Part shown: positions 2,487-21,679 of the stretch, piece by piece
How the letters are laid out: the number at the start of each line of letters is the position of its first letter
Position numbering within the stretch: position 1 is the stretch's first letter
From: an uncultured Eubacteriales bacterium
GTDB taxonomy: Bacteria; Bacillota; Clostridia; Peptostreptococcales; Anaerovoracaceae
DNA: 64,000 nucleotides
NCBI GenBank assembly: GCA_902786355.1
Contig: CADABZ010000004.1
Coordinates: forward strand, 1 to 64,000
Direction: 5' to 3'
The notes under the pieces: model-generated
Databases searched by the model: none
The model's input: only the letters and a program-made list of their open reading frames with translations
Told to the model about the DNA's origin: nothing
Made by a program: the position numbers and the translations under genes

Positions 2487-2515
2487 TTGACATTTGAGTT
2501 AGTAAAGACTAACAT
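2487..2515 (+). promoter_or_regulatory. Promoter with GTTAG-N6-CTAAC operator, site 1
   Basis: TTGACA (2487-2492), 17-bp spacer, TAACAT (2510-2515). The inverted repeat GTTAGTAAAGACTAAC (2498-2513) fills the spacer and enters the -10, so a bound repressor would exclude RNA polymerase. A short hairpin GCTCC/GGAGC (2463-2479) with a T-rich tail runs into the -35. The same operator recurs at four other places in the window. Its TTAG...CTAA half-sites resemble those of DtxR/IdeR/MntR-family metalloregulators. Confidence 0.8.
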
Positions 2516-2546
2516 AATACATAACTATTATTAAGGAGACTGACTG

Positions 2547-3038
2547 ATGCTTGCGATAAAACTGATCCTGGAAGGCCTTGGCCTGGGCTTCCTGCTATAC
2601 CTCATCTGCGCCATCGGGATCCGTAACGGAGCGATTGGAATGGTACATCTGTACGACAAAAAGGTCCGGGAACGGGTCGTCCAGCTCGGTATGACGACCC
2701 ATGAAGCGATCAGAAAAAGGAGCGCGTTGTTCAAAGGGCTGTGCGTTCCCGGGTATCTCGTATATGTGATCGTCTGCGTGTATGCTATCAACGGCGCACG
2801 TGGGTTTCTGCCCGGCTTTTGGCAGATGTTTGTTATCCTGTCGATCATGAACCTGATAGATCGCTTCCTGATCGACGATTACTGGGTAGGACACACTGAT
2901 GCATGGATCATTCCCGGTACTGAAGATCTGAGACCGTATATAACTAGGAAAGATACACAGCAGAAATGGATCATGGGAACTATGGGCATGGCGGTCGTTT
3001 CAGCTGCGCTGGCAGGAATCATGGCAGTGATTCTGTAA
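2547..3038 (+). CDS. Four-helix membrane protein of the metal-type regulon
   Basis: 163 residues, function unknown. Hydrophobic segments lie near residues 5-25, 68-86, 93-108 and 140-163. The middle holds a polar motif, MNLIDRFLIDDYWVGHTDAW, then PGTEDLRPYI. The protein at 23188-23685 has the same outline (KVYDMVFIDGF, then PEVEP), so I take the two as paralogues of one unnamed clostridial family. This one is first in an operon under operator site 1, followed by two ATC-hydrolase-like genes with 0-20 bp spacing. The start follows AAGGAG (2534-2539). A permease subunit or membrane anchor is possible; nothing in the sequence decides. Confidence 0.75.
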   Translation: MLAIKLILEGLGLGFLLYLICAIGIRNGAIGMVHLYDKKVRERVVQLGMTTHEAIRKRSALFKGLCVPGYLVYVIVCVYAINGARGFLPGFWQMFVILSIMNLIDRFLIDDYWVGHTDAWIIPGTEDLRPYITRKDTQQKWIMGTMGMAVVSAALAGIMAVIL

Positions 3039-3056
3039 ATGGAAAGGGAGCATGTT

Positions 3057-4043
3057 ATGAGACTTGAGAAATCGTTGATCTATAAGAACTTTTATAAAGA
3101 CCTGACGGAAAGATACGGTGAGGAGAAAGCCGCTGCTATCTGGAAGTATGCGAATGAAGAGCTTGAAAGGTTGGCATCAGAGTATGAGGATGCCGACAAC
3201 AATAGCCTGACCTTTGTATTCCCTCCGACTGCCCTGTACCGCGCTATTGAACATTATGCGCCAGGAGAAGCACTTGAAATGACACGTGCGTATGGGACTA
3301 AGACCGGTATCAGGCTGAGGGATATTTTCCGCAAGGTGACTGCACTGCCGGGGATCCCTGTCCTTATGTGGAAGAATATGGATAAGATAGCAGCTAAGAT
3401 GAGTGACGGATATGATATTGAGAATCTCGTGCTGGAGGAGCACCTGTGCAGCCTTGATGTCAAAGGCTGCCCGCTCTACGACAAAGCAAAGGAAATCGGC
3501 ACTCCCGAAGCTGTCCAGATGATCTGCTGCATGGATAAAGAATATATGACAGGATTTCGCGGAATAGATTATAAGAGAACAAAGTCAGTTGCGGAGGGAG
3601 ATGAATGCTGTGACTACCGTCTCAGTGATTCAAGGGGTACAGATACAGACGCAACATATACAACCGATATATCTGACGCCAGATGGATGACATATGACAT
3701 CCCGGGAAATATAGGGTGGATGACATACCTTGCAATGCTGGTGAAAATGATCAGGGACAGAGAGTATGGAAGTGCGGCAGTCTCGGCTGTTCCGGCGGCT
3801 CTTATGATCACAGGCGTTGCAGAACTGATCAGTGAGAGGATAGAAGGGCTTGACCGTGAACTTCCTGCAGCTCGGCTGTACAGAGGTTTTGGTGCCCTGA
3901 CACTCGGCGGCATTACCGGTATCGCAGCATCAGCCGTAACAAAATCAGACAAAAGGACAAAGTGCGCAATGGGAGGCAGCGCGGCGCTGTGCGCAGCGTT
4001 TGCCGGACTGCTGTTAAGAGGATATAAGATCAAGGGAAAATGA
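3057..4043 (+). CDS. ATC-hydrolase-like protein with C-terminal membrane segments
   Basis: I chose the ATG at 3057 because GGAAAGGGAG (3041-3050) sits seven bases before it; the earlier in-frame ATG at 3039 abuts the previous stop and lacks its own site. This gives 328 residues. Residues 1 to about 195 match the outline of the L-2-amino-thiazoline-4-carboxylic acid hydrolase family (PF14196): a helical N-terminus, then near the end the pattern CCMDKEYM...FRGIDYKRTKSVAEGDECCDYRL. That family name derives from an enzyme opening a thiazoline ring, but most members are untested. The C-terminal 120 residues add two or three hydrophobic segments, which is unusual. The stop overlaps the next start (ATGA). 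Confidence 0.65.
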   Translation: MRLEKSLIYKNFYKDLTERYGEEKAAAIWKYANEELERLASEYEDADNNSLTFVFPPTALYRAIEHYAPGEALEMTRAYGTKTGIRLRDIFRKVTALPGIPVLMWKNMDKIAAKMSDGYDIENLVLEEHLCSLDVKGCPLYDKAKEIGTPEAVQMICCMDKEYMTGFRGIDYKRTKSVAEGDECCDYRLSDSRGTDTDATYTTDISDARWMTYDIPGNIGWMTYLAMLVKMIRDREYGSAAVSAVPAALMITGVAELISERIEGLDRELPAARLYRGFGALTLGGITGIAASAVTKSDKRTKCAMGGSAALCAAFAGLLLRGYKIKGK

Positions 4044-4657
4044 ACGATAAAGAAATAGCGAAAACCATTAGATCATATTCTAAGTATTACAGAAATGTTC
4101 TGTTAAACGAAGGATTCGAGGATGTTGATCAAAGAATGATGTCATATGAGACGAGACTCACGAAGATGTACAGATCCGAGGAGTTTGAAGCTCACAATAT
4201 ATATCCATCTACCAACGTTTCTTTCGTTTATGCCGTCATAGCCATGTGTCTTGAGCTGAAGGATGCCGGATATACAGATGACATGATCATTCCGGCGGTT
4301 GAAAAAGGTATGGCAGACCGGTGGAATGTCTTTGTTAAGATCCTGAATTTCATAGACCGCTTTCCGTTCTGCTTTTCAGCTGTAAGAATCTGGAATAAAT
4401 CTGATCACGAAGACAGGGTAAAAGATGGCAGCATTACGTATGACCATTTCAGTCTTGAAAAAGAAAAGGTCGAATACAGGATAAGCAAATGCATGTATGT
4501 TGAGATGTTTGCTTATTACGGGATCAGACCACTTTGCAAGATATTCTGCAATACTGATCGGTTAGCCTATTCCGCCCTGACCGGACATGTTGATTTCATC
4601 CGTCATTCGGACCTGTCTGATGGGGATGTATGTTTTGATGAGATAATTAAGAAATAG
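4040..4657 (+). CDS. Second ATC-hydrolase-like protein
   Basis: 205 residues. The C-terminal third (YYGIRPLCKIFCNTDRLAYSAL, ending GDVCFDEII) resembles the closing part of the PF14196 fold seen in the upstream gene, so this is probably a diverged paralogue or a subunit of the same complex. A cysteine near residue 176 and the cysteine near the end could be functional. It starts inside the upstream stop codon (ATGA), with AAGGGAAA before it, so translation is coupled. A terminator and the next operator follow directly. The substrate is unknown; a sulfur heterocycle is only suggested by the family name. Confidence 0.55.
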   Translation: MNDKEIAKTIRSYSKYYRNVLLNEGFEDVDQRMMSYETRLTKMYRSEEFEAHNIYPSTNVSFVYAVIAMCLELKDAGYTDDMIIPAVEKGMADRWNVFVKILNFIDRFPFCFSAVRIWNKSDHEDRVKDGSITYDHFSLEKEKVEYRISKCMYVEMFAYYGIRPLCKIFCNTDRLAYSALTGHVDFIRHSDLSDGDVCFDEIIKK

Positions 4658-4669
4658 TAGCAAAATGAG

Positions 4670-4692: not shown

Positions 4693-4694
4693 CT

Positions 4695-4723
4695 TTGACA
4701 TGTGAGTTAGATATGGCTAATAT
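4695..4723 (+). promoter_or_regulatory. Promoter with GTTAG-N6-CTAAT operator, site 2
   Basis: TTGACA (4695-4700), 17-bp spacer, TAATAT (4718-4723). Operator GTTAGATATGGCTAAT (4706-4721), one base off the symmetric form. It drives the DUF6110/P-type ATPase pair. Confidence 0.8.
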
Positions 4724-4799: not shown

Positions 4800-5114
4800 A
4801 TGGGAATCTGGAAATGGAGTCACGCCGGTATTTTCGTTGGAGGAATGGTGTTCGCAACTAAAGGCATCGAAGCTCTGAAGAGCAAAGCTGCTCACAAGGC
4901 GTACGTTAATGCCACGGCATTTGGACTTAGATGCAGAGATGAGGTAATGGAAAGCGTCACTTCGGTAAGAGAAGGCTGCGAGGACATCTACGCCGAGGCA
5001 GTAGAACTCAACGAAGAAAGAGCAAATGCTCCTGAAGCTGAAGCCGTAGTGATCGAAGATAAGAGCAAAGCTGCCGGGCCTGCGAAGAAAACAGCGAAAA
5101 AGGGAGACAAATAA
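4800..5114 (+). CDS. DUF6110-family small membrane protein, partner of the P-type ATPase
   Basis: 104 residues: one N-terminal membrane segment (about 7-23), a conserved helix with a KAYVNATAFGLRCRDEVMESV core and an acidic CEDIYAEAVELNEER stretch, then an Ala/Glu/Lys-rich tail. Proteins of this type (DUF6110) sit beside heavy-metal P-type ATPases in Firmicutes. The layout (single membrane helix, acidic amphipathic helix, ATPase neighbour) recalls mycobacterial PacL/DUF1490 proteins, which help metal-exporting P-ATPases; that analogy is inference. AGGAGG lies upstream and the ATPase starts 15 bp after the stop. Under operator site 2. Confidence 0.75.
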   Translation: MGIWKWSHAGIFVGGMVFATKGIEALKSKAAHKAYVNATAFGLRCRDEVMESVTSVREGCEDIYAEAVELNEERANAPEAEAVVIEDKSKAAGPAKKTAKKGDK

Positions 5115-5129
5115 AGGACGGAGGCGCTT

Positions 5130-7202
5130 ATGAGATTTATAGTCCGCGCAGAGTCGCGCGGCAGGATCAGGGTACATGCTGACATTGACAGAATGCATCT
5201 GTCAGAGGCAGATACTCTGGAATACTATCTGAAAGCTCTTCCGGGAGTCGGTCATGTCAAGGTATATGACCGTACACGAGATGTTGTGATCAACTACACA
5301 TGCTGCAGAGAAGACCTGGTGGAAGCTCTGGCGGTATTCTCGTTCAATGATGAGAGAGCTAAGGCTCTTGTGCCTGAGCACACGAGCAGGGCCTCGGACA
5401 GAGAGTTTGAGGAGCGGCTTGTGAACCGTATCATCGTGAGATATGCGCGCAAACTGTTGCTGCCGCATCCTCTGAGAGTTATGTGGTGTGCGTATAAGGC
5501 AGCAGGTTTCTTCTTTGATGGAGTCAAAGCGCTCTGCAGAGGCGATGTGAATGTTGCAGTACTTGATGCAGCGGCGATCACTGTGTCTTTAGCACGGGGA
5601 GACCATGATACATCGTCATCGGTAATGTTCCTGCTGGGGATCGGCGACCTGCTGGAGGAGTGGGCGCGCAAAAAGTCCATAGAGGACCTGGCAGGCCTGA
5701 TGTCGCTCAATGTCGATAAGGCCTGGGCGGTGCGAAACGGAACTGAAGTCCTGGTACCTGTATCTGAGATCCAGGCGGGTGAGCAGGTTATAGTCAGGAT
5801 GGGAAATATGATACCGCTCGATGGCAAAGTCATATCCGGAACAGCAATGGTCAACCAGCAGACGATGACAGGAGAATCGATGCCTGTTAAGAAGGCTGCG
5901 GGCAGCTATGTGTATGGCGGCACAGTAGTCGAAGAAGGCGAGTGCCTGCTGAAAGTAGACAAGGAGGCCGGCAGCGGCAGGTATGACCGCATAGTCAGGA
6001 TGATCGAGGAGTCTGAGAAACTCAAGTCAACAAGCGAATCAAAGGCTGCAGGCCTTGCAGACCGCCTTGTGCCGTACAGTCTGGCCGGAACCGTCATAGC
6101 TTATGCGCTGACACGCAATGTTCAGACTGCAATGGCCTTCCTGATGGTCGACTATTCCTGTGCTCTCAAACTGTCAATGCCTCTGGCTGTCCTCTCTGCG
6201 ATGAGAGAAAGCGGCAGGCACAGGATCACAGTGAAGGGCGGAAAGTTCCTGGAGATCGTCTCAGAAGCTGATACCATAGTATTTGATAAGACGGGGACCC
6301 TCACGAAAGCGACCCCGTCAGTAGCAGACGTAATACCTTTTGGCGGAAACGACAGTGATGAAATGCTGAGGATAGCGGCATGCCTGGAGGAACACTATCC
6401 TCACTCCATAGCTAATGCAGTTGTGGAAGCTGCCAGGAAAAAGGGCCTTGATCATGATGAAATGCACTCTGAGGTAGAGTATGTAGTCGCGCATGGCATC
6501 ATAAGCTCGATAGAGGGCAGATGGGCATCGATCGGCAGCTATCATTTCATATTTGAAGATGAGGGCTGCAAGGTGCCAGAAGGGGAAGAGGAGAAGTTCA
6601 ACGATCTTCCTGATGAGTACTCGCTGCTCTATCTTTCAGTGGCGGACAGGCTTGCTGCGGTCATATGCATTGACGATCCTGTGCGCGAGGGCGTGAAGGC
6701 GGTCATTGAAGAACTCAGAGAGAATGGCTTCAGACGGATCGTGATGATGACAGGCGACAGCAGAAAAACCGCTGCATATGTAGCTTCACAGACAGGCGTT
6801 GATGAATACATACCGGAAGTCCTTCCGGAGGATAAGGCTGAATTTATCAGAAATGCCAGAGAAAGCGGCAATAAGGTAATCATGATAGGTGACGGGGTAA
6901 ATGATTCGCCGGCGCTGTCTGAGGCTGATGCAGGTATCGCAGTTAACACAGGAGCGGCTATTGCAAGAGAGATCGCAGATATAACGATCGAGGCAGAGGA
7001 CCTTCGGGAACTGATCGTGCTCAGAAATATCTCGGATGCATTGATGCACAGGATAGACAGAGATTACAGGGTGATCATCTCATTCAATTCTCTCCTGATA
7101 CTGTTGGGAGCTTTCGGGATCATTGCACCGGCAACTTCGGCAATGCTCCATAATTTATCAACAATAGGCATCAGCTTGTATAACATGACAGACCTGATAT
7201 AG
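5130..7202 (+). CDS. P1B-type heavy-metal-translocating ATPase
   Basis: 690 residues. The N-terminus (1-75) is an HMA-like fold without the CxxC metal motif. It has the actuator TGE (247-249), the phosphorylated Asp in DKTGT (D386), a nucleotide-domain motif HYPHSIA in place of the usual HP (His kept, Pro to Ser), and GDGVNDSPAL near 587. The membrane metal site is SCALK (343-347), not CPC or SPC. This fits the CtpC-like group, linked in other bacteria to Mn, Zn or Fe transport. The C-terminus ends soon after the last membrane pair (LHNLSTIGISLYN). Co-transcribed with the DUF6110 gene; the probable metalloregulator operator upstream supports a metal role. Direction and ion cannot be told from sequence. 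Confidence 0.9.
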   Translation: MRFIVRAESRGRIRVHADIDRMHLSEADTLEYYLKALPGVGHVKVYDRTRDVVINYTCCREDLVEALAVFSFNDERAKALVPEHTSRASDREFEERLVNRIIVRYARKLLLPHPLRVMWCAYKAAGFFFDGVKALCRGDVNVAVLDAAAITVSLARGDHDTSSSVMFLLGIGDLLEEWARKKSIEDLAGLMSLNVDKAWAVRNGTEVLVPVSEIQAGEQVIVRMGNMIPLDGKVISGTAMVNQQTMTGESMPVKKAAGSYVYGGTVVEEGECLLKVDKEAGSGRYDRIVRMIEESEKLKSTSESKAAGLADRLVPYSLAGTVIAYALTRNVQTAMAFLMVDYSCALKLSMPLAVLSAMRESGRHRITVKGGKFLEIVSEADTIVFDKTGTLTKATPSVADVIPFGGNDSDEMLRIAACLEEHYPHSIANAVVEAARKKGLDHDEMHSEVEYVVAHGIISSIEGRWASIGSYHFIFEDEGCKVPEGEEEKFNDLPDEYSLLYLSVADRLAAVICIDDPVREGVKAVIEELRENGFRRIVMMTGDSRKTAAYVASQTGVDEYIPEVLPEDKAEFIRNARESGNKVIMIGDGVNDSPALSEADAGIAVNTGAAIAREIADITIEAEDLRELIVLRNISDALMHRIDRDYRVIISFNSLLILLGAFGIIAPATSAMLHNLSTIGISLYNMTDLI

Positions 7203-7236
7203 GATGCCCGAGCGATCTGACAGCGAGTAATAATAA

Positions 7237-7289: not shown

Positions 7290-7712
7290 TTACGCAATCG
7301 CTGCTCCGAGAGCCTCGCATGCCGCAACTGCATCATCGTCCGGAGCTTCATTGGCAATGACAGGATCAGCGGCCAGAGATATTCCTGACATCCTGGCATC
7401 ATCTGCCCAGCTGTTCATCCATTCTCCGCCGCCCCATCCGTACGAACCGAACAGGCCGACCTTCTTGCCGCCGAGCTTGCGTTTCACATCGTCCCACATT
7501 GGCTGGAATTCATCCTCTTCGAGGACCTCGGCGCCCATTGCCGGGCAGCCGAATGCGATGCCGTCGAATCCTGCGACATCTGCAGGACCAAACTCTGCTG
7601 ATGTGAGCTTGCTTACCTCAGCGCCTGCCTTCTCAGCACCTGCTGCTACAGCGTCAGCCATTGCTTCTGTGTTTCCGGTTGCAGACCAGAATACTACTGC
7701 TACTTTACTCAT
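7290..7712 (-). CDS. Flavodoxin
   Basis: 140 residues, normal for a short-chain flavodoxin. The FMN phosphate loop SATGNTE is at residues 10-16, with the ring-contact regions CPAMGAE near 56 and SYGWGGGEW near 90. Flavodoxin is a one-electron carrier that replaces ferredoxin when iron is short. Ribosome site GAAAGGAA lies before the ATG. It is downstream of the DUF3793 gene on the same strand (80 bp gap) and so probably shares operator 8412-8429. That placement is one reason to read the regulon as iron-responsive. Confidence 0.95.
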   Translation of the reverse strand: MSKVAVVFWSATGNTEAMADAVAAGAEKAGAEVSKLTSAEFGPADVAGFDGIAFGCPAMGAEVLEEDEFQPMWDDVKRKLGGKKVGLFGSYGWGGGEWMNSWADDARMSGISLAADPVIANEAPDDDAVAACEALGAAIA

Positions 7713-7792
7713 TTCACTTGTTCCTTTCTATATGCTTATATATGGTTACAAAACCGGGTATCCCCGAGGATCGTCTCAATTATCTGCGTATG

Positions 7793-8392
7793 CTAACTTG
7801 CTACCGTGAGCTGGTAGATGCTGCGTTTTCCGCTTCTCCAGAGAGCGCTGTACACGCTGAAGCACTTCCTGTATTTTTCAAACTGCTCTATCGCTGCATC
7901 CTTATCTCCATAAACTTTCCAGATGCCTGTATACTTGGAATTCTTGCCGTTGTTATCTATGAAACCCTTCACATCCTGAAGGGGATAGCCAAGAAAGATC
8001 CCTATTTCATGAGGAAATCTCATCTCATCCGGCTCCTTACCGGACAGGCGGCTCATGAGGTGATCAAGACAGCTCCTGATACTGCACTCGGCTGAGCTGC
8101 ATCCTTCGCAGCACAAACAGCTTTCATATCCAAAGGAACTCAGAAATCCCTGCACTTCCGGGTCGGTCAGAGTGCGGGCGAGAGATGTGTAACGATATAC
8201 ATATATGAGTGCACTTGTGGCCGTTCTGCGAAGTATGCACATGCTTAGTCCGTATTCAGCGAAGCCATCATTCCATTCTGCAACGGCTTCTTCGACAGAC
8301 GAATCAGAAGGGCATTTACAGCAGAACAGGCTGCCGGATTTGAGCGATGCAAGTGTCGGCGCACAGCAGTCTATGAGATAGTTTTCGAACAT
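7793..8392 (-). CDS. DUF3793 family protein
   Basis: 199 residues. The diagnostic stretch is HEIGIFLGYPLQDVKGFID near residues 128-146, followed by YTGIWKVYGD. Several cysteines cluster at about 93-106 (CLCCEGC...CSIRSC). DUF3793 members are often found next to flavodoxin or Feo genes in Clostridia; their biochemical role is unknown. Ribosome site AGGAAAGGA lies just upstream. It is transcribed leftward from an operator-bearing promoter and followed by flavodoxin. Confidence 0.85.
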   Translation of the reverse strand: MFENYLIDCCAPTLASLKSGSLFCCKCPSDSSVEEAVAEWNDGFAEYGLSMCILRRTATSALIYVYRYTSLARTLTDPEVQGFLSSFGYESCLCCEGCSSAECSIRSCLDHLMSRLSGKEPDEMRFPHEIGIFLGYPLQDVKGFIDNNGKNSKYTGIWKVYGDKDAAIEQFEKYRKCFSVYSALWRSGKRSIYQLTVAS

Positions 8393-8411: not shown

Positions 8412-8429
8412 GGTTAGTTATCTCTAACC
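8412..8429 (-). promoter_or_regulatory. GTTAG-N6-CTAAC operator, site 3, for the leftward DUF3793/flavodoxin unit
   Basis: GGTTAGTTATCTCTAACC: perfect arms GGTTAG/CTAACC. On the minus strand a TTGTGA (complement of 8438-8443) lies 17 bp before TAACCG, a weak promoter in the right place, with the operator between. It is 53 bp from the divergent operator site 4. Confidence 0.7.
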
Positions 8430-8470
8430 AAGGTCACAATACATCCTTCTCAAAGGAAAGTCAATATAGT

Positions 8471-8499
8471 TTGACAAAAAAGTTAGATAAGACTAACAT
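8471..8499 (+). promoter_or_regulatory. Promoter with GTTAG-N6-CTAAC operator, site 4
   Basis: TTGACA (8471-8476), 17-bp spacer, TAACAT (8494-8499). Operator GTTAGATAAGACTAAC (8482-8497) is base-for-base the same as site 5 at 21662-21677. It drives the long hydrolase/methyltransferase/ABC operon that begins at 8559. Confidence 0.85.
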
Positions 8500-10159: not shown

Positions 10160-10183
10160 TGACGATTTGAAAAGAGGGAGCAC

Positions 10184-10210
10184 ATGGCAGAGGAAGACGG
10201 TTATCGATAA
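10184..10210 (+). other. Possible eight-codon leader ORF
   Basis: ATG after AGAGGGAGCAC, encoding MAEEDGYR and then TAA, in the gap before the first ABC gene. The ribosome site is good but the peptide is very short. It may be a translational spacer, a leader, or chance. Confidence 0.25.
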
Positions 10211-10255
10211 ACCAGGTCTGACGGTCAACTAGGCGACAGAAGGAAGGGTGATTAT

Positions 10256-13827: not shown

Positions 13828-13846
13828 TCTGACGAGGAGGGAAACT

Positions 13847-15688
13847 ATGTCAAAGAAAGCATCACAGTTTCAAAAAAGGGTAATGAGCCTGGGATACCGC
13901 GGCAAGGAGATCTTCAAGCCGCTTAATACCGGGTGGATAGACGAGCATACGGCATGTATCCGTGAATGGATCGCCAATATATTCTTTTACACCAAAAACG
14001 GGACAACGATCATGATCGATGCCGGATACAACTATGACAGACTTGCGGAAAAGATGCGGTGGCTGGATATCGATCCATCGTCCATTCAGGATATCCTTAT
14101 TACGCATCAGGATACAGACCATGTAGGAGCGGTAGAACGCGACTCAGACGGACTCTTCAGGCATGCAACACTTTATCTGAGTGAAGTCGAGAACAGATAT
14201 ATGACAGGAGAAGTCCGCCGGAAAGTCATATTCGGCACATACAAGCTCCCTATGGTGGAGACAGATAATAAGAAGGTTCTTCTGAAGGATGGAGAGGTCT
14301 TTCAGATAGGAGACATCCGCGTTGAGGCGATCATGGTACCTGGTCACACCTGGGGACATATGGTCTATCTGATCGATGAAGCTTATCTGTTTACCGGCGA
14401 CACGATATGGTTTGGCCCTGATGGGGGATACAGTTTCATCAATTCTCTTGCGGAGGACAATGATCTGGCGAAGCAGTCACTGGAGAAACTGGAAAAGATC
14501 CTGAGAGAACGCGGCCTGTCACCTAAGATCATCACGGGACATACAGGGTGGTCGCAGGATCTGGACTTTGCTTTTGCTCATCGCGATCAGGTCTGCAATA
14601 GCCTAAAGCGGCAGAAGCCGCATGATCCGTCAGCGCCGTACGACGGATATGATGAGAGCGATGATACGGAAGAAGGCGCAAGAAACGTTCCACTGGTTTC
14701 TGTAAATGATGTAGAAAAGCACAAGGTTCTGCTGTTTGGGGCAGGAGTGATCGGAGCATATCTGGCGCATGTTCTGATTCAGGCGGGAAATGAGGTTACG
14801 ATCCTGGCAAGGGAAGAAAGAGCGAAATCTCTCCGGAAAAACGGACTTGTCATAAAGCATCATCTGCAGAGAACGACAACAAAAGATCCTGTAGAGGCTG
14901 TCACGGATGTAGGGGGCCGTTCATTTGATGCAGCTTTTGTGGTGATGCCATACCATAAGATCCGGCAGGCTCTTCCGCAGATCAGGCAGCTTAATACAAA
15001 ACTGCTTGTGCTGGTAGGAAACGATCTTGCACCGGCAGAGGTGGAGGAGGACCTGAGAAAAGCTCCCGGAATCGAAAAGATCCTGTTCGGATTCCAGGTA
15101 TCGGGAGGCAAAAAAGAAGCAGATCATTATGTATGCGAACGCTTCGGCGGAAGCTTCATGGACATTGGCAGGCTCCACGGCAGGACAGACACGGAACTGA
15201 GGAAGTGGACGGAGAAGCTGTTTGAAGGCACTTCATATAAGCTGAACTGGCAGGACGATATGGAAGCGTACCTGATATGCCATCCGGCTGCCATACTGCC
15301 GATAGGATACCTGTCATACATCTGTGATGGCAACCTGCGCAGCTCCACAAAAGAGCAGCGAAGAATGATGGTGGATGCTTCTCATGAAGCATACGAAGCG
15401 CTGAAAGCAATAGGGATCCCAATCTACCCCGAAGGGGAGGATAAGTTCTACGAAAACGGGGCCAGAGGGAAGCTGATGCAGACGCTTTATCTCATCATGT
15501 CCAAGTCCAGGATAGGTGACCTTATTGCTTGTGAGCACTGCCGGAATGCAGTCTCTGAGATGGAGCAGATAGATGCATTTTATGAGGAGCTTCTGAAGGA
15601 TTATCCTGAGGAAAAGCTTGAGACGTGGAACAGATTGCGGGGCATGATGCCGTCATGGGACGAACTGCATAGAAAATACGGGAACTAG
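13847..15688 (+). CDS. Fusion: metallo-beta-lactamase-fold hydrolase plus ketopantoate-reductase-like domain
   Basis: 613 residues, two enzymes in one chain. Residues 20-260 are an MBL fold: THQDTDHVG (in place of THxHxDHxG, second His replaced by Asp), PGHTWGH near 165, FTGDT near 183 and ITGHTGW near 227. Residues about 290-600 are an ApbA/PanE-like dehydrogenase: VLLFGAGVIGAYLAHVLIQ (Rossmann loop) followed by TILAREERA. A charged linker (about 262-285) joins them. A hydrolase able to open an ester or thioester, coupled to an NAD(P)H reductase, could work in sequence on one compound; this is inference. An N-terminal stretch (VMS then GKEIFKPLN, 12-27) recurs inside the next gene. Good ribosome site GACGAGGAGGG. 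Confidence 0.8.
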   Translation: MSKKASQFQKRVMSLGYRGKEIFKPLNTGWIDEHTACIREWIANIFFYTKNGTTIMIDAGYNYDRLAEKMRWLDIDPSSIQDILITHQDTDHVGAVERDSDGLFRHATLYLSEVENRYMTGEVRRKVIFGTYKLPMVETDNKKVLLKDGEVFQIGDIRVEAIMVPGHTWGHMVYLIDEAYLFTGDTIWFGPDGGYSFINSLAEDNDLAKQSLEKLEKILRERGLSPKIITGHTGWSQDLDFAFAHRDQVCNSLKRQKPHDPSAPYDGYDESDDTEEGARNVPLVSVNDVEKHKVLLFGAGVIGAYLAHVLIQAGNEVTILAREERAKSLRKNGLVIKHHLQRTTTKDPVEAVTDVGGRSFDAAFVVMPYHKIRQALPQIRQLNTKLLVLVGNDLAPAEVEEDLRKAPGIEKILFGFQVSGGKKEADHYVCERFGGSFMDIGRLHGRTDTELRKWTEKLFEGTSYKLNWQDDMEAYLICHPAAILPIGYLSYICDGNLRSSTKEQRRMMVDASHEAYEALKAIGIPIYPEGEDKFYENGARGKLMQTLYLIMSKSRIGDLIACEHCRNAVSEMEQIDAFYEELLKDYPEEKLETWNRLRGMMPSWDELHRKYGN

Positions 15689-15730
15689 ATGCTGTTCAGT
15701 AGATATAAGACAATCTATGGAGAAAAAGCA

Positions 15731-17299
15731 ATGTACAGAGTGACAAATCTTACAGATACAGAGATAAGAAAGATAGGCGATGCGTATGCTGACTACACAT
15801 ACTCTGAAGGTGAAGTCGGAATGACGCTGGTCTATAAGGACAGGCAGGCCGTAAGCGATTATATCTGCGGCTTTGTCCGCGCGATGATCAAAAATGGCTC
15901 TCTATATACGACAGGCCCTGAGCACGAAGGGTATATAGCGTATTATCCGTCATGGAAAATGATGAGACCGGCTGCGGTCACGGAACTGCTCAGAACTTTC
16001 GGGAACACTATGGGAATCAAGGGCGTGCGCGATTTAATAAGCAAGTTGTCAGCCGCCGGAGAATCTTTTGAAGACAGCCTGAAAAAGGCAAAGAAAAAGT
16101 ATATATTTGTTGCTCTCGTGGCAGTCCCTGAAGAGCACCAGGGCAAGGGGCATATGCGTAAACTTCTGGAGTTCGCCTTTGAGAAGGGGCGGGAAAACAA
16201 TTGCCCTGTTATTCTTGACACCGATGATTCTCTTAAAAAGACCAAGTACGAACACCTCGGAATGAAAACTGTAAGGACCAGAAAGATCGCAGATGATTCA
16301 TTCATGTATGATCTGGTCTGGGAACCGGATGAGAGCAAAGTAATGAGCTCGAAAGACAGTGGAAAGGAGATATTCAAACCGTTGAATAAGCAGATCGCTA
16401 TTCCGGAAACCGAAGGATTCTATGGCGCATATTACCCGAATAGTAAGTCTTCAGATAAGGCGATGATACTTATGCTGGGAGACAGTTCTGACGACAGGCT
16501 TGCTGCCAGCGGCGCAAAGTGGGTCCATGAACTTGGCTGCCATGCTCTTGCCATGTCCCCGGACAAAAAAGACTACGGCCATCATAATTACCCGATCGAA
16601 AGATTTGGATCAGCGATAGCATTTCTGAAGGCCCGCGGCATCAAAAAAATCGGTATTGCAGGTGCATCTACTACCGGCATGCTGGCTCTGGTGGCTGCAT
16701 CTTACTATCCTGATATAACTCTGACCATAGCGATGTCGCCAAGCGATTTTATCATGGAAGGGTTCTACCAGGATGGAAAAGACGGTATGAGAGAACGTCC
16801 GGGAGACAATGAATCAACAGTAACGTGGAAAGGTGAGCCGCTGCCTTATCTGCCGTATGCATACAGACACCCTGAATACTGGCAGAAAATACAGGAAGAA
16901 ACCAAAGAAGGCAGGGATATGGTGGCTTCGAGGAAGATGTTTGATGAGTCAGAGCGAAGACACCCGGTTCAGGAAGATGAAAAAATCAAAGTCGAGAATA
17001 TCAAAGGGCAGATAGTATTTGTAGGAGCCGAAGATGATGTCCTGTGGGATACATGCAAGTATATCCGGAGAATGGAAGAACGTCTGTCTGAGAAGAAGCA
17101 TGACTGCACGTACCTCTCGCTTATATACGAGCATGGAACGCATTTTGTTTTCCCAGAGTCGCTTCTCAGAAAGATGCTCCCGGTAGGAGCGGACCTGATG
17201 ACACTTCTCTTCAAAGCAGGAAGAGAACATCCCGCAGAATGCAAAGCCGTCAGAGAAGATATAGATATCAAACTGAGAGAAGTAATATCTGAGTGGTAG
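15731..17299 (+). CDS. Fusion: GNAT acetyltransferase plus BAAT-like alpha/beta hydrolase
   Basis: Start chosen at ATG 15731 (GGAG eight bases upstream, and the GNAT fold begins at once); an ATG at 15689 would add 14 residues. About 522 residues. The N-terminal GNAT domain (1-195) has acetyl-CoA motif VPEEHQGKGHMRKLLEFAF near 130. After a short linker containing VMS and GKEIFKPLN, the C-terminal half resembles BAAT/acyl-CoA thioester hydrolases: elbow GIAGASTTG near 316-324 and EHGTHFVFP near 475. The stand-alone hydrolase at 24324 is a relative. Likely role: acyl or acetyl transfer to, and cleavage of, the same substrate. It abuts the MBL fusion gene. Confidence 0.75.
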   Translation: MYRVTNLTDTEIRKIGDAYADYTYSEGEVGMTLVYKDRQAVSDYICGFVRAMIKNGSLYTTGPEHEGYIAYYPSWKMMRPAAVTELLRTFGNTMGIKGVRDLISKLSAAGESFEDSLKKAKKKYIFVALVAVPEEHQGKGHMRKLLEFAFEKGRENNCPVILDTDDSLKKTKYEHLGMKTVRTRKIADDSFMYDLVWEPDESKVMSSKDSGKEIFKPLNKQIAIPETEGFYGAYYPNSKSSDKAMILMLGDSSDDRLAASGAKWVHELGCHALAMSPDKKDYGHHNYPIERFGSAIAFLKARGIKKIGIAGASTTGMLALVAASYYPDITLTIAMSPSDFIMEGFYQDGKDGMRERPGDNESTVTWKGEPLPYLPYAYRHPEYWQKIQEETKEGRDMVASRKMFDESERRHPVQEDEKIKVENIKGQIVFVGAEDDVLWDTCKYIRRMEERLSEKKHDCTYLSLIYEHGTHFVFPESLLRKMLPVGADLMTLLFKAGREHPAECKAVREDIDIKLREVISEW

Positions 17300-17351
17300 A
17301 AAACTTTGAGATGAGTGTTACAGATTCATTTAGTAAAAAAATGGAGAACAT

Positions 17352-19820
17352 ATGAACAAAGCAACAAGTCTTAGATACAGAGCTTTGAGCGGCATGTTCA
17401 GAGCAATCAAAGTGAATAAAATGCTGGATAAGCAGGGCAGTGAATTTGATGCATTACTTCAGGAGTACAGGGAAAAACAGAAGAAGCCGCTGAAGATCCC
17501 ATACAAAAGGATGCGCGATAAGTTCGAAATCGACACAAAGAGCATAGACGGGGTCACCTGCTATGTCGTCAGACAGAAGGACTCTGCACCGGACAAAGCA
17601 GTCCTGTATCTATTCGGAGGCGGATATATCCTGCCGCCTGATCCGGGCGATATCATCCTGTGCGGACAGATAGCTGAGAACTGTAACGCTGAAGTGTGGT
17701 TCCCTCTGTATCCTATGGCACCGGACAACGACCTGTTTCAAACACTTCAGGGAACGCTCGGCGTATACAGGGACATACTGGACCATTATGATGCTGACAG
17801 GATCAGATTCTTCGGTACATCATCCGGCGGCGGGCAGGCGTTGTCGCTTTGCATGTACATTCGCCACGAGGGCCTGGATGTGCCTCTCCCGGGACGGCTT
17901 GTGCTGCAGTCTCCGGGACTTCAGGTGCCGCCGAGCGACAAGCAGAGAGCTGAAATGGACAGGCTCAGCCATCTTGATGTGATGATTCCGCCGGGATTCT
18001 TCGACAACATCGCTCCTGTACTTGCAACAGGAGATGATGCATATCTCCTCAGCCCGATACTTTTCGATCTCACCGGATTCCCTCCGATAGATATATTCTA
18101 CGGGACCAATGAGGTGATGATCGCTTATCTTGATGACTTCAGAGCAAAGTGCAGCGAGTGTGGAGTGGAACTTAATGTACATATCGGAGAAGGCATGATG
18201 CATTGCTGGGGAGCTATGGATTTCGTGCCCGAAGCAAAAGCTGTCAGGCAGGAGTATTTCAAAGCTATCGGCAATGAGACAAGAGAGCTCTGCGTGCATG
18301 AGTACGGAGATCCGGCAGACCCTTTAATCGTACTGCTGGCCCCGATGCTTCTTTCCGGTGAGGACATGTACAACATAGTTTCACCGCACCTGGAAGGAAA
18401 GTATTTCATAGTAGCGCCTGATCAGGGCGGGCACGGCGATGCCGGAAGATATGTAAGCGCTGAAAGCGAGTACCGAGAGCTGAAGGAATACCTCGTTTCA
18501 AAAGGCTATACGGATATAAAGCTGCTGTATGGAGCATCACTGGGTGTCGCGATCGCGTACAGGTTGTTTGAGGACAAGGACTTCAACATAGAGAAGGCGT
18601 GGTTCGATGGTGTTGCTCTCAACAGGAATGCTGCTTTTGCCGAATCATTCATGAAGAACCTGTTCAGAAGAAGGAAAAAGATGCTGGCGAAGACTCACGC
18701 TGAAGCATCACCGAACCTGGTGGAGATGTACGGATACGAATTCGCTAAGAGAATGACTGCTAATTTTGCCCGCATAACGCTGTACGACATCGACAATATA
18801 TGCTATGCCTGCTGCCACTATGATCTGAAAACTTTCACGACAGATCAGCAGAAACGGCTGCACCTTGAGTACGGCAGCAAGGATTTTGACCTGAAACTGT
18901 CTAAGAAGGCGATCCGCAAATATCTGCCTGAAGCCGTAACCGTCATAAGAGACGGCTATCCGCATTGCGGATACATGGCAGCTCATACAGCTGAATATGT
19001 CAAGGAAATGGAGCGATGGATCGGAACAAGGAGGAATAACATGGACCTTAAATTCGGCGACGTCCAGGAGACTGCACTTATCACGCTGGCCATACGTGCA
19101 AGTGAAACAGCAAGGGCTGATGCCAGAATCAGTGATCCTGCAGCGAAGGAGATAATAGATACGCTCGGAGTTGATGTAAGCAAATATGATCCGTTCCTGT
19201 CCCACGAAGGCGTGGTCGCCAGGACTATCATGTACCGGGATGCGCTGAAAAGTCTTATAGCGCAATATCCGGATGCTGTGTGCATCAACCTCGGGTGCGG
19301 ATTCGACGATAAGTTCCCGCAGGTAGATAACGGGAAGATCAGATGGTATGACGTCGATCTCGCTGATCAGATTGCGGTCCGGAGAAAAGTATTCGAGGAC
19401 AGAGAACGCTGCAAAATGATGGACGGCGACGCACTCAACGGTGCATGGACCAAGAGTATACCTGAATCAGACATGTATATCATAGTCATGGAAGGCGTTC
19501 TGGAATACTTCTCAAAGGAGCAGGTGAAGACCTGCCTGAACATGCTCTGCGATTCATTTAATCATGGCTACCTGCTTGCCGAGCTGCATGCGCCTTTCGT
19601 TGCAAAGAACTCAAAACATCATGATGCGGTCAAGCATACGAATGCAACATTCGGATGGGGCACAAAATCCGGGGAAGAATATCTTGAACTTGAGCCGCGA
19701 ATGAGCCTGATCTCAGAAACAAGCTATAATGAGGAAATGAAAAAGCATACAATCCGCGGCAAACTGTTTGCGATCATAGGCAAGAACCTCAATAACAGGC
19801 TCGCGATCTATAAGTGGTGA
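17352..19820 (+). CDS. Triple fusion: two alpha/beta hydrolases plus LCM-type methyltransferase
   Basis: 822 residues. Domain 1 (about 50-300) is a hormone-sensitive-lipase-like hydrolase with GGGYILPP (oxyanion) and elbow GTSSGGG (S157). Domain 2 (about 312-560) is a second alpha/beta hydrolase with elbow YGASLGV (S396), related to the 8559 product. Domain 3 (564-822) is an LCM-type methyltransferase with NLGCGFDDKF near 645 and YDVDLADQ near 665. The separate 8559/9326 pair has the same domain 2 and 3 types, so this looks like a fused duplicate plus an added lipase. An internal ATG at 19041 has a strong ribosome site, so the methyltransferase may also be made alone. The start at 17352 follows GGAGA. 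Confidence 0.85.
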   Translation: MNKATSLRYRALSGMFRAIKVNKMLDKQGSEFDALLQEYREKQKKPLKIPYKRMRDKFEIDTKSIDGVTCYVVRQKDSAPDKAVLYLFGGGYILPPDPGDIILCGQIAENCNAEVWFPLYPMAPDNDLFQTLQGTLGVYRDILDHYDADRIRFFGTSSGGGQALSLCMYIRHEGLDVPLPGRLVLQSPGLQVPPSDKQRAEMDRLSHLDVMIPPGFFDNIAPVLATGDDAYLLSPILFDLTGFPPIDIFYGTNEVMIAYLDDFRAKCSECGVELNVHIGEGMMHCWGAMDFVPEAKAVRQEYFKAIGNETRELCVHEYGDPADPLIVLLAPMLLSGEDMYNIVSPHLEGKYFIVAPDQGGHGDAGRYVSAESEYRELKEYLVSKGYTDIKLLYGASLGVAIAYRLFEDKDFNIEKAWFDGVALNRNAAFAESFMKNLFRRRKKMLAKTHAEASPNLVEMYGYEFAKRMTANFARITLYDIDNICYACCHYDLKTFTTDQQKRLHLEYGSKDFDLKLSKKAIRKYLPEAVTVIRDGYPHCGYMAAHTAEYVKEMERWIGTRRNNMDLKFGDVQETALITLAIRASETARADARISDPAAKEIIDTLGVDVSKYDPFLSHEGVVARTIMYRDALKSLIAQYPDAVCINLGCGFDDKFPQVDNGKIRWYDVDLADQIAVRRKVFEDRERCKMMDGDALNGAWTKSIPESDMYIIVMEGVLEYFSKEQVKTCLNMLCDSFNHGYLLAELHAPFVAKNSKHHDAVKHTNATFGWGTKSGEEYLELEPRMSLISETSYNEEMKKHTIRGKLFAIIGKNLNNRLAIYKW
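19028..19043 (+). promoter_or_regulatory. Internal ribosome site at the methyltransferase domain of the triple fusion
   Basis: AAGGAGG followed seven bases later by an in-frame ATG (19041), exactly where the methyltransferase domain begins (MDLKFGDVQET). Translation from here would give a 259-residue free methyltransferase ending at 19820. It may be a relic of a former separate gene. Confidence 0.5.
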
Positions 19821-19874
19821 AAGAAGCAACCAAATGAGTCTGCTGCATATATAGCTGTTACAAAGGAGGCTGAC

Positions 19875-20390
19875 TTGGGAATATTTGCAAGAAGGAAACG
19901 TGAAAAGCATTATACTACGATGAGCATTGAAGAGCTCCGGATGCTGAATAACGATGAACTGCGTGACGCTGTATCTGCACGCATGATGAAGGAAGCAGGA
20001 AGACGTGAAGTGGCACAATGCCTGAATTTGTTCACAGGTGCCAGAAGAGTTTTTTATATCGTATCACTGTACGAGGCTGAAGTTAGTACTGACGGACTGT
20101 GCAGATTTCTGGTTGGACCGGGACGGTCAGCAACAGGATACATAATGGATACACTCAGAGAAATCCATGCAACCAGACATGCGGAGCTGCTCAGGATGTT
20201 TACATCGGATAACGGCATCGATCTGGACAATCTTGGAGATTTAAGAATCGAGAATTCATGGGAGTATGAGGACGTGAAAGGCAGATACCCTTTTGACATA
20301 TTTAATGAGAAATTCCAGAAACTGTATGACAAAGAATCTATAGATTCCAGATTGATGCAATATGTTAGAAATCATATAGAAGAGTTCTAA
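19875..20390 (+). CDS. DMP19/DUF4375-like protein
   Basis: 171 residues, starting at TTG because AAAGGAGG (19862-19869) sits at the right distance and no ATG does. The middle (YEAEVSTDGLCRFLVGPGRSATGYIMDTLREI) follows the outline of the DMP19/DUF4375 family, which includes a DNA-mimic protein of Neisseria but is otherwise uncharacterised. The usual NGG motif is changed to STDGL here. It sits between fusion enzymes in the same transcription unit. Its role in the pathway is unknown. Confidence 0.5.
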   Translation: MGIFARRKREKHYTTMSIEELRMLNNDELRDAVSARMMKEAGRREVAQCLNLFTGARRVFYIVSLYEAEVSTDGLCRFLVGPGRSATGYIMDTLREIHATRHAELLRMFTSDNGIDLDNLGDLRIENSWEYEDVKGRYPFDIFNEKFQKLYDKESIDSRLMQYVRNHIEEF

Positions 20391-20528
20391 AGAGGAAATC
20401 ACCAGAACGAATGCGGTATTCTTGATGCTCCTGCTGTTATCGCAGATTCTGAGAATATGAATAATGGAGGGTAAACGCCTCTGAACATGTGTGCAGGGTT
20501 GAAAGGGATTTTTCGGAGGACAAATATA

Positions 20529-21305
20529 ATGCAATTTGATGAAATGGGAAGTAAATATGGCAAAACGCTGATGCTGCTGCCGGGAACGGCCTGTGACTAC
20601 CAGACAAATTTCGGCTCTGTGATAGACAGGCTTACTGAGAAATATCACCTGATATGCGTTAACTATGACGGATTTGACGGAAGCAGTCTGGTGTTTCCGG
20701 ACATCATTACTGTGACAGAGAAGATCGAGCGTTACATCAAGGTAAACCATGATGGCAGTATAGACGGAGCCATTGGCTCTTCACTTGGCAGTACATTCGT
20801 CGGTCAGCTGATACAACGGCAGAATATACATATGGATCATGGTATATTCGGCAGTCCGGATCTCGACCAAAGCGGCAGATTCAGCGCGTGGCTCCAGTCA
20901 AAGCTGGTAGTTCCGCTTTTAACAAGTTTTACCCGCGGTGAAAAGCAGAAAGCGAAAACAAAAGAAAAACTCAAGAACTTTTTTGAGATGAGTGATGAGA
21001 CGGCAGATAAGTTCATGGCTTGTTTTGAGAAATTCAAGCCCGAATCTATCAGAAATGAATACTACACAGATCTTCTGACCTGGCTTGAGGACGATATCCA
21101 TGTGGAGAACACAAGGGTACACTTCATATATGCAAATAAGATGGGAGAGAAGTATCTCAAACGCTATAAGAAATACTTCAGAGATCCGGAAATCAGGGAG
21201 TTTGATATGCAGCATGAACAGTGGCTTTTCGGGGGAGAGGAATATGCTGTTCCTGTACTGAATGCGATCGATGAATTTATGGGGATCGAAGGAGTCAGGC
21301 GCTGA
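20529..21305 (+). CDS. Alpha/beta hydrolase (diverged)
   Basis: 258 residues from ATG 20529, chosen because GGAGGA (20515-20520) precedes it; a more upstream ATG at 20487 has poor spacing. Oxyanion region LLPGTACDYQTN (17-28), elbow IGSSLGSTF with Ser near 85, and a His in the final segment (MQHEQWLFGG near 229) that may complete the triad. It resembles the hydrolases at 8559 and in the 17352 fusion but is more diverged. Last intact gene of the long operon; a broken paralogue fragment follows at once. Confidence 0.7.
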   Translation: MQFDEMGSKYGKTLMLLPGTACDYQTNFGSVIDRLTEKYHLICVNYDGFDGSSLVFPDIITVTEKIERYIKVNHDGSIDGAIGSSLGSTFVGQLIQRQNIHMDHGIFGSPDLDQSGRFSAWLQSKLVVPLLTSFTRGEKQKAKTKEKLKNFFEMSDETADKFMACFEKFKPESIRNEYYTDLLTWLEDDIHVENTRVHFIYANKMGEKYLKRYKKYFRDPEIREFDMQHEQWLFGGEEYAVPVLNAIDEFMGIEGVRR

Positions 21306-21593
21306 GACTGCTTGTACAATACCCTGCGGTTTATGCGCTTATTGCATGGATCTGCACTCAGTTCTGACAGCAAAGATGGTTTGACCGTGATTGCGTAAGA
21401 AGCAGAGAGAGTAATGAGCACGTTCCCGTCTGGAACCATAAGATATATCTGAAGGACTGTGGAAACGGGACAGAATACACAGATGAAGTAGACATAGAAG
21501 CAGGTTGGAAGACAGCTTTTATATGGCTGTGGGCTAATGCGTTCTACGCGCACCGGCAAAAGAAGTGGCTCAGGCTGCTGAAGGAGAAATAAT
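21306..21593 (+). pseudogene. Gene remnants: tail of a 23188-type membrane protein, plus an orphan reading frame
   Basis: Positions 21309-21368 translate to LLVQYPAVYALIAWICTQF and a stop, nearly the same as the last 19 residues of the intact membrane protein at 23188-23685 (LLVIYPAVSALIAWACTQF). The rest of that copy is missing. In the same frame after the TGA, 78 sense codons run to a TAA at 21591-21593 (for example WKTAFIWLWANAFYAHRQ) with no start codon. I see this as the scar of a duplication or recombination at the operon end. Nothing else is visible up to the promoter at 21651. Confidence 0.6.
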
Positions 21594-21650
21594 ATCAAAT
21601 GAACATATAGATAATTATAGGATCGCTCCCCAAAAACGGGAACAATTCTT

Positions 21651-21679
21651 TTGACACTCGAGTTAGATAAGACTAACAT
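21651..21679 (+). promoter_or_regulatory. Promoter with GTTAG-N6-CTAAC operator, site 5
   Basis: TTGACA (21651-21656), 17-bp spacer, TAACAT (21674-21679). Operator GTTAGATAAGACTAAC (21662-21677). The 19 bases ending at the -35 (GGGAACAATTCTTTTGACA) match site 1 at 18 of 19 positions, so the whole promoter module looks duplicated. Confidence 0.85.

What the first reader, a model, noticed from the sequence alone, without database searches (positions are those of the whole stretch)
2487..21679. Five copies of one 16-bp operator define an undescribed regulon
GTTAG-N6-CTAAC occurs at 2498-2513, 4706-4721 (last base changed), 8413-8428, 8482-8497 and 21662-21677, each at the head of a transcription unit. 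At four of them it lies inside a 17-bp spacer between TTGACA and a TAACAT/TAATAT -10, at the same phase. I saw no copy elsewhere in the window. The TTAG/CTAA half-sites resemble those of DtxR/IdeR/MntR regulators; flavodoxin and a metal ATPase among the targets fit iron or manganese. The regulator gene itself is not in the window.
Basis: partly seen in the sequence, partly recalled or inferred. Interest (0 to 1): 0.75.

Follow-up and report, generated by a model that had tools for sequence, protein, structure and literature searches.

The report
Iron-repressor operator regulon in gut Clostridia
A short palindrome repeated at five promoters in this rumen bacterium is most likely the docking site of a DtxR-type iron repressor found across gut Clostridia, and in this genus it also sits at the promoter of a candidate small RNA not seen before.

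Summary
The five sites are real (5 found, 0.88 expected, 0 of 100 shuffles reach 5). Four share one promoter layout. Genome-wide the exact motif occurs 7 times, reversed control 1. In the best 80 DUF3793 loci the exact motif occurs 155 times, control 0; 10 of 14 dtxR homologues there have it upstream, other ORFs 52 of 750. Targets include feoAB, DUF3793-flavodoxin, a P-type ATPase and a hydrolase/methyltransferase/ABC island. New: in this genus the operator precedes a conserved short unit (candidate small RNA; 32 of 32 copies read) whose core can pair with the predicted 5' end of the window transcript at 21687-21697; the other four window leaders pair poorly. Protein binding, metal response and RNA expression are inferred, not shown.

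The parts
2487..2515 (+). Promoter with operator 1: TTGACA 2487-2492, operator GTTAGTAAAGACTAAC 2498-2513, -10 TAACAT 2510-2515
2547..4657 (+). Transcription unit 1: membrane-type protein without Pfam match, then two ATC_hydrolase-like proteins
   Evidence: Pfam; continuity of the unit inferred
4695..4723 (+). Promoter with operator 2: TTGACA 4695-4700, GTTAGATATGGCTAAT 4706-4721, -10 TAATAT 4718-4723
4800..7202 (+). Transcription unit 2: DUF6110 protein and P1B-type (heavy-metal) ATPase
7290..8392 (-). Transcription unit 3: DUF3793 protein (7793-8392) and short-chain flavodoxin (7290-7712)
8413..8464 (-). Operator 3 GTTAGTTATCTCTAAC 8413-8428, downstream of the minus-strand promoter TTGACT (8464-8459)-17-TATTGT (8441-8436)
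8471..8499 (+). Promoter with operator 4: TTGACA 8471-8476, GTTAGATAAGACTAAC 8482-8497, -10 TAACAT 8494-8499
8559..21305 (+). Transcription unit 4 (extent inferred): alpha/beta hydrolases, LCM-type methyltransferases, two ABC_membrane/ABC_tran half-transporters, metallo-beta-lactamase/ApbA fusion, GNAT/BAAT_C fusion, DMP19-like protein
21651..21679 (+). Promoter with operator 5: TTGACA 21651-21656, GTTAGATAAGACTAAC 21662-21677, -10 TAACAT 21674-21679
21687..21697 (+). AAGAGGGATGA at the predicted 5' end of the transcript, complementary to the core of the candidate small RNA at C20 (outside the window)
21717..25196 (+). Transcription unit 5: double methyltransferase (its start may be 21738, after GGAGG), small protein without Pfam match, methyltransferase, BAAT_C hydrolase

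Best explanation
GTTAG-N6-CTAAC is the operator of an SH3-less DtxR-family, metal-activated repressor, here the 132-aa protein at C5:34829-35227. When Fe2+ is plentiful a metal-loaded dimer sits over the -10 hexamer or just downstream of it and blocks RNA polymerase; when iron falls it leaves, and the cell makes Feo ferrous-iron transporters, flavodoxin in place of ferredoxin, DUF3793, the DUF6110/P-type ATPase, and the ABC/hydrolase/methyltransferase island. The same repressor controls a small RNA of roughly 100-150 nt in this genus. Shown here: the sites, their placement, their conservation, their association with dtxR and feo, and the small-RNA anatomy. Inferred: binding by this protein, iron as the signal, repression as the mode, and the existence of the RNA.
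For: One PF02742 match and no FUR match in the genome. DtxR matches in 16 of 18 same-genus genomes including this one (G005 at only 45% identity); the two without a match are 86% and 71% complete. Exact sites: 47 in 17 same-genus relatives against 11 control. GTTAR-N6-YTAAC twice before the fused feoA-feoB gene at C5:312 and 322, and exact sites before feoA in G004, G006, G012, G014 and G016 and before feoA and feoB in G005. In the best 80 of 586 DUF3793 loci (L175 is from this genus) 155 exact sites against 0 control, 59 of 80 loci with one within 400 bp upstream of DUF3793; TTAG-Nx-CTAA gives 180 for N6 and 3, 6, 4, 7 for N4, N5, N7, N8. DtxR homologues: 14 ORFs in 12 of the 80 loci, 10 of 14 (one in each of 10 loci) with the site within 350 bp upstream; other ORFs 52 of 750. 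In 5 loci dtxR is divergent from feoA-feoA-feoB with a site between (L180, L229, L234, L236, L240). In G025 two of three dtxR homologues and their feoB neighbours have sites upstream. Spacing equals the IdeR half site TTAGGNNNNCCTAA bound by one dimer (PMC8464063, passages). EqbA, SH3-less with Cys104, binds a palindrome centred on GTTAGATGTATCTAAC, helped by Fe2+ and Zn2+ (PMC3672683, passages); our protein also lacks an SH3 domain and has Cys where MntR has Glu (alignment).
Against: No binding, expression or metal data. The closest solved relatives and NCBIfam models are MntR, the models all below cut-off, so Mn2+ is possible. A review states that SH3-less family members reported so far do not respond to Fe2+ in vivo (PMC7762939, passage). 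In 15 same-genus dtxR loci none has an exact GTTAR-N6-YTAAC within 250 bp upstream; 3 of 15 (G001, G015, G017) have a one-mismatch site 108 bp upstream. At one mismatch the motif is not enriched genome-wide. The 80 loci were picked by DUF3793, and in three (L217, L232, L235) dtxR shares its sites with the divergent DUF3793 gene. 4 of 14 dtxR homologues there lack a site. An exporter-like P-type ATPase derepressed by iron shortage is unexpected. 6 of the 47 same-genus exact sites lie in terminator-like hairpins, and several others have no evident metal gene.
Confidence: 0.83

Rival explanations
1. The operator belongs to the TetR-family protein at C9, divergent from the paralogous DUF3793-flavodoxin unit and next to DUF6110-ATPase, which represses the window units.
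For: At C9 two sites flank the TetR/DUF3793 divergent promoters; in G012 a site precedes the TetR orthologue and the ABC pair; in G189 a small-RNA copy lies directly before a TetR-like gene (likeness by eye); 16-bp palindromes are usual for TetR operators (recalled).
Against: TetR orthologues over 65% identity were found in 3 of 18 same-genus genomes (G000, G012, G015), while sites before feoA occur in genomes without one (G004, G005, G006, G014, G016). In the 80 DUF3793 loci TetR homologues (26-36% identity) occur in 7 and none has a site upstream. It looks like a target, not the regulator.
Confidence: 0.06
2. The regulator is DtxR-type but senses Mn2+ (MntR-like), and iron genes respond secondarily. 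(A variant of the best explanation, not exclusive of its operator part.)
For: Closest solved structures and NCBIfam models are MntR; two-domain architecture without SH3; Asp conserved at the MntR Asp8 position in the alignment (residue number recalled); ZIP transporter genes behind sites in G011 and G013.
Against: Feo and flavodoxin recur among the targets; Cys instead of MntR Glu at the primary site; EqbA with the same operator core responds to Fe2+ and Zn2+ and less to Mn2+ in vitro.
Confidence: 0.13
3. The repeats are a mobile or duplicated promoter cassette whose palindrome is not a regulatory site.
For: Upstream stretch, promoter or leader are similar among several copies in this genus; a further copy at C38 precedes what looks by eye like a remnant of island genes.
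Against: The motif recurs with unrelated flanks before feoA, guaB-like, ZIP, ABC_C9, dtxR and DUF3793 genes across Clostridia, where little beyond the palindrome is shared.
Confidence: 0.03

Closest known systems
EqbA and the eqbB operator of Streptococcus equi ICESe2 (PMC3672683; abstract and passages seen)
   Same: Identical operator core GTTAG-N6-CTAAC; DtxR-like regulator without SH3 domain, Cys at the metal site; controls iron acquisition including ABC transporters
   Different: The EqbA operator is a 36-bp palindrome at one mobile siderophore operon; here a bare 16-18 bp site at many chromosomal units (feo, flavodoxin, DUF3793, candidate small RNA), in the window mostly overlapping the -10. 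Direct sequence comparison with EqbA not made
DtxR/IdeR of Actinobacteria (PMC8464063 and PMC7762939; passages seen)
   Same: TTAG/CTAA half sites at the same N6 spacing as the single-dimer half site TTAGGNNNNCCTAA; Fe_dep_repress and Fe_dep_repr_C domains
   Different: No 19-bp two-dimer box, no SH3 domain, G outside the half site and mostly C or T inside it instead of G
MntR
   Same: Two-domain architecture; best solved-structure matches
   Different: Operator and targets differ (B. subtilis MntR site recalled); Cys in place of Glu
Iron-sparing small RNAs FsrA (B. subtilis), IsrR (S. aureus), RyhB (search listing only; rest recalled)
   Same: Iron-repressor-type site at the promoter, short terminated transcript, C/U-rich segment
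   Different: Site of DtxR type rather than Fur type; no Rfam match; found in one genus only; the only pairing examined is with a leader of the same regulon, not an iron-enzyme mRNA
Fur regulons with feoAB and flavodoxin in Desulfovibrio (PMC545781, passages seen)
   Different: Different regulator family and operator

Membership tests
DtxR/IdeR-family iron regulon | A Fe_dep_repress/Fe_dep_repr_C protein in the genome | tested here: met
   one match to PF02742 genome-wide; both Pfam domains over cut-off
DtxR/IdeR-family iron regulon | TTAG and CTAA half sites at one-dimer spacing (N6) | tested here: met
   PMC8464063 passages
DtxR/IdeR-family iron regulon | Full 19-bp two-dimer box TTAGGTTAGSCTAACCTAA | tested here: not met
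   flanks beyond one base carry little information in 155 sites; window sites lack the outer repeats
DtxR/IdeR-family iron regulon | C-terminal SH3-like domain of the regulator | tested here: not met
   132 aa, no third domain; the G025 homologue carries a FeoA domain (SH3-like, recalled)
DtxR/IdeR-family iron regulon | Sites at iron-uptake genes | tested here: met
   feoAB in own genome and 6 relatives
DtxR/IdeR-family iron regulon | Site at the regulator gene | tested here: inconclusive
   10 of 14 dtxR homologues in the DUF3793 loci and 2 of 3 in G025; in this genus no exact site in 15 loci, one-mismatch sites in 3 of 15
DtxR/IdeR-family iron regulon | Metal-dependent binding and repression | not testable with these tools
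   needs EMSA and expression data
EqbA subclass | SH3-less, Cys at metal site, GTTAG-N6-CTAAC operator core | tested here: met
   operator
EqbA subclass | 36-bp extended palindrome | tested here: not met
   flanks of window sites are not palindromic
EqbA subclass | Sequence clustering of the regulator with EqbA | not tested
   EqbA sequence not fetched
MntR regulon | Match to an MntR model over its curated cut-off | tested here: not met
   99.0 against 153, 82 against 138 and 44.3 against 350 bits
TetR operator | Site upstream of, and co-occurring with, a TetR gene | tested here: not met
   (met locally at C9 and in G012)
Iron-starvation small RNA | Iron-repressor-type site at the promoter and intrinsic terminator | tested here: met
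   operator 32 of 32 loci read; terminator-like hairpin with T-rich 3' arm or tail in 30 of 32; in G182 and G006 an insertion lengthens the unit, in G182 a terminator is seen further on
Iron-starvation small RNA | Expression under iron limitation and pairing with mRNAs of iron-using proteins | not testable with these tools
   no transcript data; only the 64-kb window was scanned for pairing

The most novel reading that the evidence does not exclude
In this rumen genus a DtxR-type iron repressor controls an otherwise unknown small RNA whose conserved core pairs with the very 5' end of a transcript from the same regulon (AAGAGGGATGA, predicted nt 1-11), so that the two are made together in iron starvation and the small RNA protects or tunes its partner mRNA from the 5' end: a coherent feed-forward loop built from one operator.
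Probability: 0.4. Interest if true: 0.75.

Novelty: new variant of a known kind. Interest (0 to 1): 0.62.

Why it matters
Iron control in gut and rumen Clostridia is, to my knowledge, little described compared with Fur in Bacillus or DtxR in Actinobacteria. A simple operator (GTTAG-N6-CTAAC) that can be read in an assembled genome gives a direct way to list candidate iron-starvation genes in these bacteria, gives the unknown protein DUF3793 an iron context, and marks the hydrolase/methyltransferase/ABC island as possible iron acquisition. A DtxR-controlled small RNA in this group would be a new kind of output for such a regulator here and is testable by one northern blot.

Tried and rejected
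TetR as regulator: rejected on co-occurrence and site placement, kept as a rival. Fur: no PF01475 match in the genome. Motif at one mismatch: not enriched genome-wide, so weak sites were used only where a second line supported them. Terminator hairpins: 5 of 10 G016 sites and 1 of 2 G009 sites lie in terminator-like hairpins; they remain in the counts. Rfam: no match for the five small-RNA loci given (L019, L083, L090, L095, L099). Near-complete targets of the small-RNA core: allowing 3 mismatches over 21 nt across 47 genus genomes gave mainly the small RNA itself, with odd hits in G003, G012, G179, G191, G193, G194 and G202; the G193 extra is a nearby inverted copy, the G012 extra lies in the TetR leader in sense orientation, the others were not looked at. 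Covariation of the small RNA: weak, 2 of 16 pairs with a kept double change, covariation term slightly unfavourable (12 sequences). The other four window leaders pair poorly with the small-RNA core (-5.2 to -12.0 kcal/mol). Literature: ten searches; only the last turned up the EqbA paper; DUF3793 gave 1 paper, on a fungus. Fetched but not analysed: L025, L035, L036.
Full report
What was checked. The five sites are present at the stated coordinates and nowhere else in the window at up to one mismatch (5 found, mean 0.88 in 100 shuffles, none reaching 5). The spacing is specific: of GTTAG-Nx-CTAAC with x from 2 to 11 only x = 6 occurs, 4 times. In the 2.50-Mb genome (63 contigs, 95% complete) the exact motif occurs 7 times, 4 of them in the window, against 1 for the reversed control. 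At up to one mismatch the genome shows no excess (20 against 26; widened pattern 45 against 107). Widened to GTTAR-N6-YTAAC there are 12 exact sites, including two overlapping ones 10 bp apart before a fused feoA-feoB gene.

Promoter layout. Four window sites and C38:3418 share TTGACA-N5-GTTAG-N6-CTAA(C/T)-AT. The operator covers the 3' part of the 17-bp spacer and the first four bases of the -10. The 8413 site lies 7 nt past the -10 of the divergent DUF3793 promoter; the C9 paralogous DUF3793 promoter has the same arrangement. In the 80 loci from other genomes the commonest offset of a promoter-like -35 is 36 bp before the site (22 cases), i.e. operator just after the -10; the 11-bp offset seen in the window is rare there (3 cases; loose matching). 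So the window phase is a local variant, probably spread by duplication of a promoter cassette: 2498 and 21662 share their upstream stretch, and 21662 shares its leader with copies in relatives.

Gene content. Pfam and NCBIfam give ATC_hydrolase-like proteins, DUF6110 and a heavy-metal P-type ATPase, flavodoxin and DUF3793, alpha/beta hydrolases, LCM and other methyltransferases, two ABC half-transporters, a metallo-beta-lactamase/ApbA fusion and a GNAT/BAAT_C fusion. The DUF6110 protein has a weak hit below cut-off to DUF1490.

Which regulator. The genome has one PF02742 match, a 132-aa protein at C5 with both DtxR domains, next to rubrerythrin, and no FUR match. A TetR gene at C9 lies beside two sites, which made TetR a serious rival. 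Relatives decide. DtxR is in 16 of 18 same-genus genomes; TetR orthologues over 65% identity in 3 of 18. In 17 same-genus relatives there are 47 exact sites against 11 control. All 47 were fetched and read, with genes labelled by BLAST to window or own proteins or by eye: feoA or feoB in G004, G005, G006, G012, G014 and G016; DUF3793 in G001 and G015; the ABC_C9 transporter in G010, G012, G014 and G016; ZIP transporter genes in G011 and G013 (Pfam); a guaB-like gene in G011, G012 and G013 (own copy confirmed by Pfam; the others by eye); island-type hydrolase/methyltransferase genes; TetR in G012; the small RNA in G001, G007, G009, G010 and G015; 6 in terminator-like hairpins; several without an evident link. 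The dtxR genes of this genus are not preceded by an exact site in 15 loci; in G001, G015 and G017 a one-mismatch site lies 108 bp upstream.

Wider conservation. In their 860,021 bp the exact motif occurs 155 times in 73 loci, the reversed control 0 times, and TTAG-Nx-CTAA 3, 6, 4 and 7 times for N4, N5, N7 and N8 against 180 for N6. It lies within 400 bp upstream of DUF3793 in 59 of 80. DtxR homologues are 14 ORFs in 12 of the 80 loci; 10 of 14 have the site within 350 bp upstream. TetR_C9 homologues occur in 7 loci, none with a site. Other ORFs of 100 aa or more: 52 of 750. In L180 (Cuneatibacter sp.), L229 (Clostridium minihomine), L234, L236 and L240 (Faecalispora jeddahensis) dtxR is divergent from feoA-feoA-feoB with a site between; in L194, L209, L217, L232 and L235 it adjoins DUF3793, and in the last three it shares its sites with the divergent DUF3793 gene. 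In G025, from another family of the order, a dtxR-FeoA fusion and the next feoB, and a second dtxR and its divergent feoB, have sites upstream within about 300 bp; a third, weaker homologue has none. One match, 100% identical in DUF3793, is rumen isolate RUG099 (L175), whose contig length equals that of G015:C25; this places the genus among rumen Clostridiales.

What is known. IdeR can bind a half site TTAGGNNNNCCTAA with one dimer (PMC8464063, passages); TTAG-N6-CTAA has this spacing. The nearest precedent is EqbA of Streptococcus equi (PMC3672683, abstract and passages): an SH3-less DtxR-like protein with Cys104 whose binding, enhanced by Fe2+ and Zn2+ and less by Mn2+, needs a palindrome centred on GTTAGATGTATCTAAC. 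The authors called it a likely new subclass. Our regulator shares the missing SH3 domain, the Cys at the MntR Glu position (alignment; the correspondence to DtxR Cys102 is recalled) and the operator core. Against an iron reading, MntR models score best though below cut-off, and a review says SH3-less members do not respond to Fe2+ in vivo (PMC7762939, passage). My ten searches found no report of this chromosomal regulon; most subscription papers and the regulon databases were not searched.

The small RNA. At C20:224 the operator sits at the start of a short unit: TTGACA-17-TATTAT, operator, variable hairpin, the core CACCATAATACTTTCATCCCTCTTAC and a terminator. The 26-nt core, allowing 3 mismatches, is in 34 of 47 genus genomes, reversed control 0, and in 2 of 148 sampled from the family, both among the 3 of this genus in that sample. 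I read 32 of the 35 hits: all 32 have a perfect GTTAR-N6-YTAAC upstream, 3 to 66 nt before CCATAATAC, and a TTGACA-17 promoter. A terminator-like hairpin was found in 30 of 32; in G182 and G006 an insertion lengthens the unit. The invariance of the first 18 core bases is by construction, since that string was the anchor, where 3 mismatches were free, mismatches fell almost only at the ends. The own core has no start codon. The own RNA folds better than all 200 shuffles (z -5.39), mainly by its hairpins; covariation is weak. No Rfam match in the five loci given.

Its possible partner. AAGAGGGATGA, complementary to the core, occurs twice in the genome: in the small-RNA gene and at window 21687-21697, 9 nt after operator 5. 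About one chance hit is expected genome-wide (my arithmetic), so its position, not the count, is the point. By the -10 position this is the predicted 5' end of the transcript. The leader is conserved at operator promoters of G007, G012, G014 and G015, though these are copies of one cassette. Predicted pairing is -26.1 kcal/mol, first of 8526 overlapping 60-nt windows on both strands of the window (next -25.7), and lower than all 500 shuffled cores (their best -25.8); the other four window leaders give -5.2 to -12.0. The ribosome site (GGAGG 21728-21732) is about 30 nt downstream of the match, so blocking of translation is not the obvious effect; protection of the 5' end is my inference.

Verdict. 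The system is a DtxR-type iron regulon with a short single-dimer-type operator, known in kind and partly in detail (EqbA), new as far as my searches went in its breadth across gut Clostridia, its target set and the candidate small RNA.

Noticed in passing
L019:84-246 (G000:C20), L255-L286, L083, L099: Candidate operator-controlled small RNA confined to this genus; its -35 region is also strongly conserved in the 8 sequences aligned, with an inverted repeat TTCCTA-N9-TAGGAA around TTGACA in several, perhaps a second regulator site.
   Followed up: partly
L271:1480-1600: In G189 a copy of the small RNA ends just before a TetR_C9-like gene (likeness by eye); in G012 a core-like stretch lies in the TetR leader.
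   Followed up: partly
L020, L078, L088, L093: guaB-like (IMP dehydrogenase) genes have the site upstream in G011, G012 and G013, and weaker sites in the own genome (C6:71747, 71833); no link to iron is obvious.
   Followed up: no
L017:6560-6720 (G000:C9): Between TetR and DUF6110 at C9 there are GTTAAC inverted repeats (GTTAACGGCGTTAAC and others) rather than the window operator.
   Followed up: no
L018:3418-3640 (G000:C38): An operator promoter precedes what looks by eye like a fused remnant of two island genes, about 1.6 kb from a recombinase-like gene, suggesting decay and movement of island pieces.
   Followed up: no
L067, L068, L071, L073, L100: In G016 and G009 the motif forms the inner part of terminator-like hairpins, many with GGGGACAGTCCCC-type arms, a source of false positives for motif scans.
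   Followed up: partly
window 10256-13827; L193:5552-10741: The ABC half-transporter pair is 76% identical in a rumen Eubacterium MAG, where it lies in a row flavodoxin-DUF3793-ABC-ABC-DtxR with operators upstream.
   Followed up: partly
window 4800-5114: DUF6110 protein before the ATPase has a weak hit below cut-off to DUF1490, recalled as the family of mycobacterial P-ATPase partner proteins.
   Followed up: no
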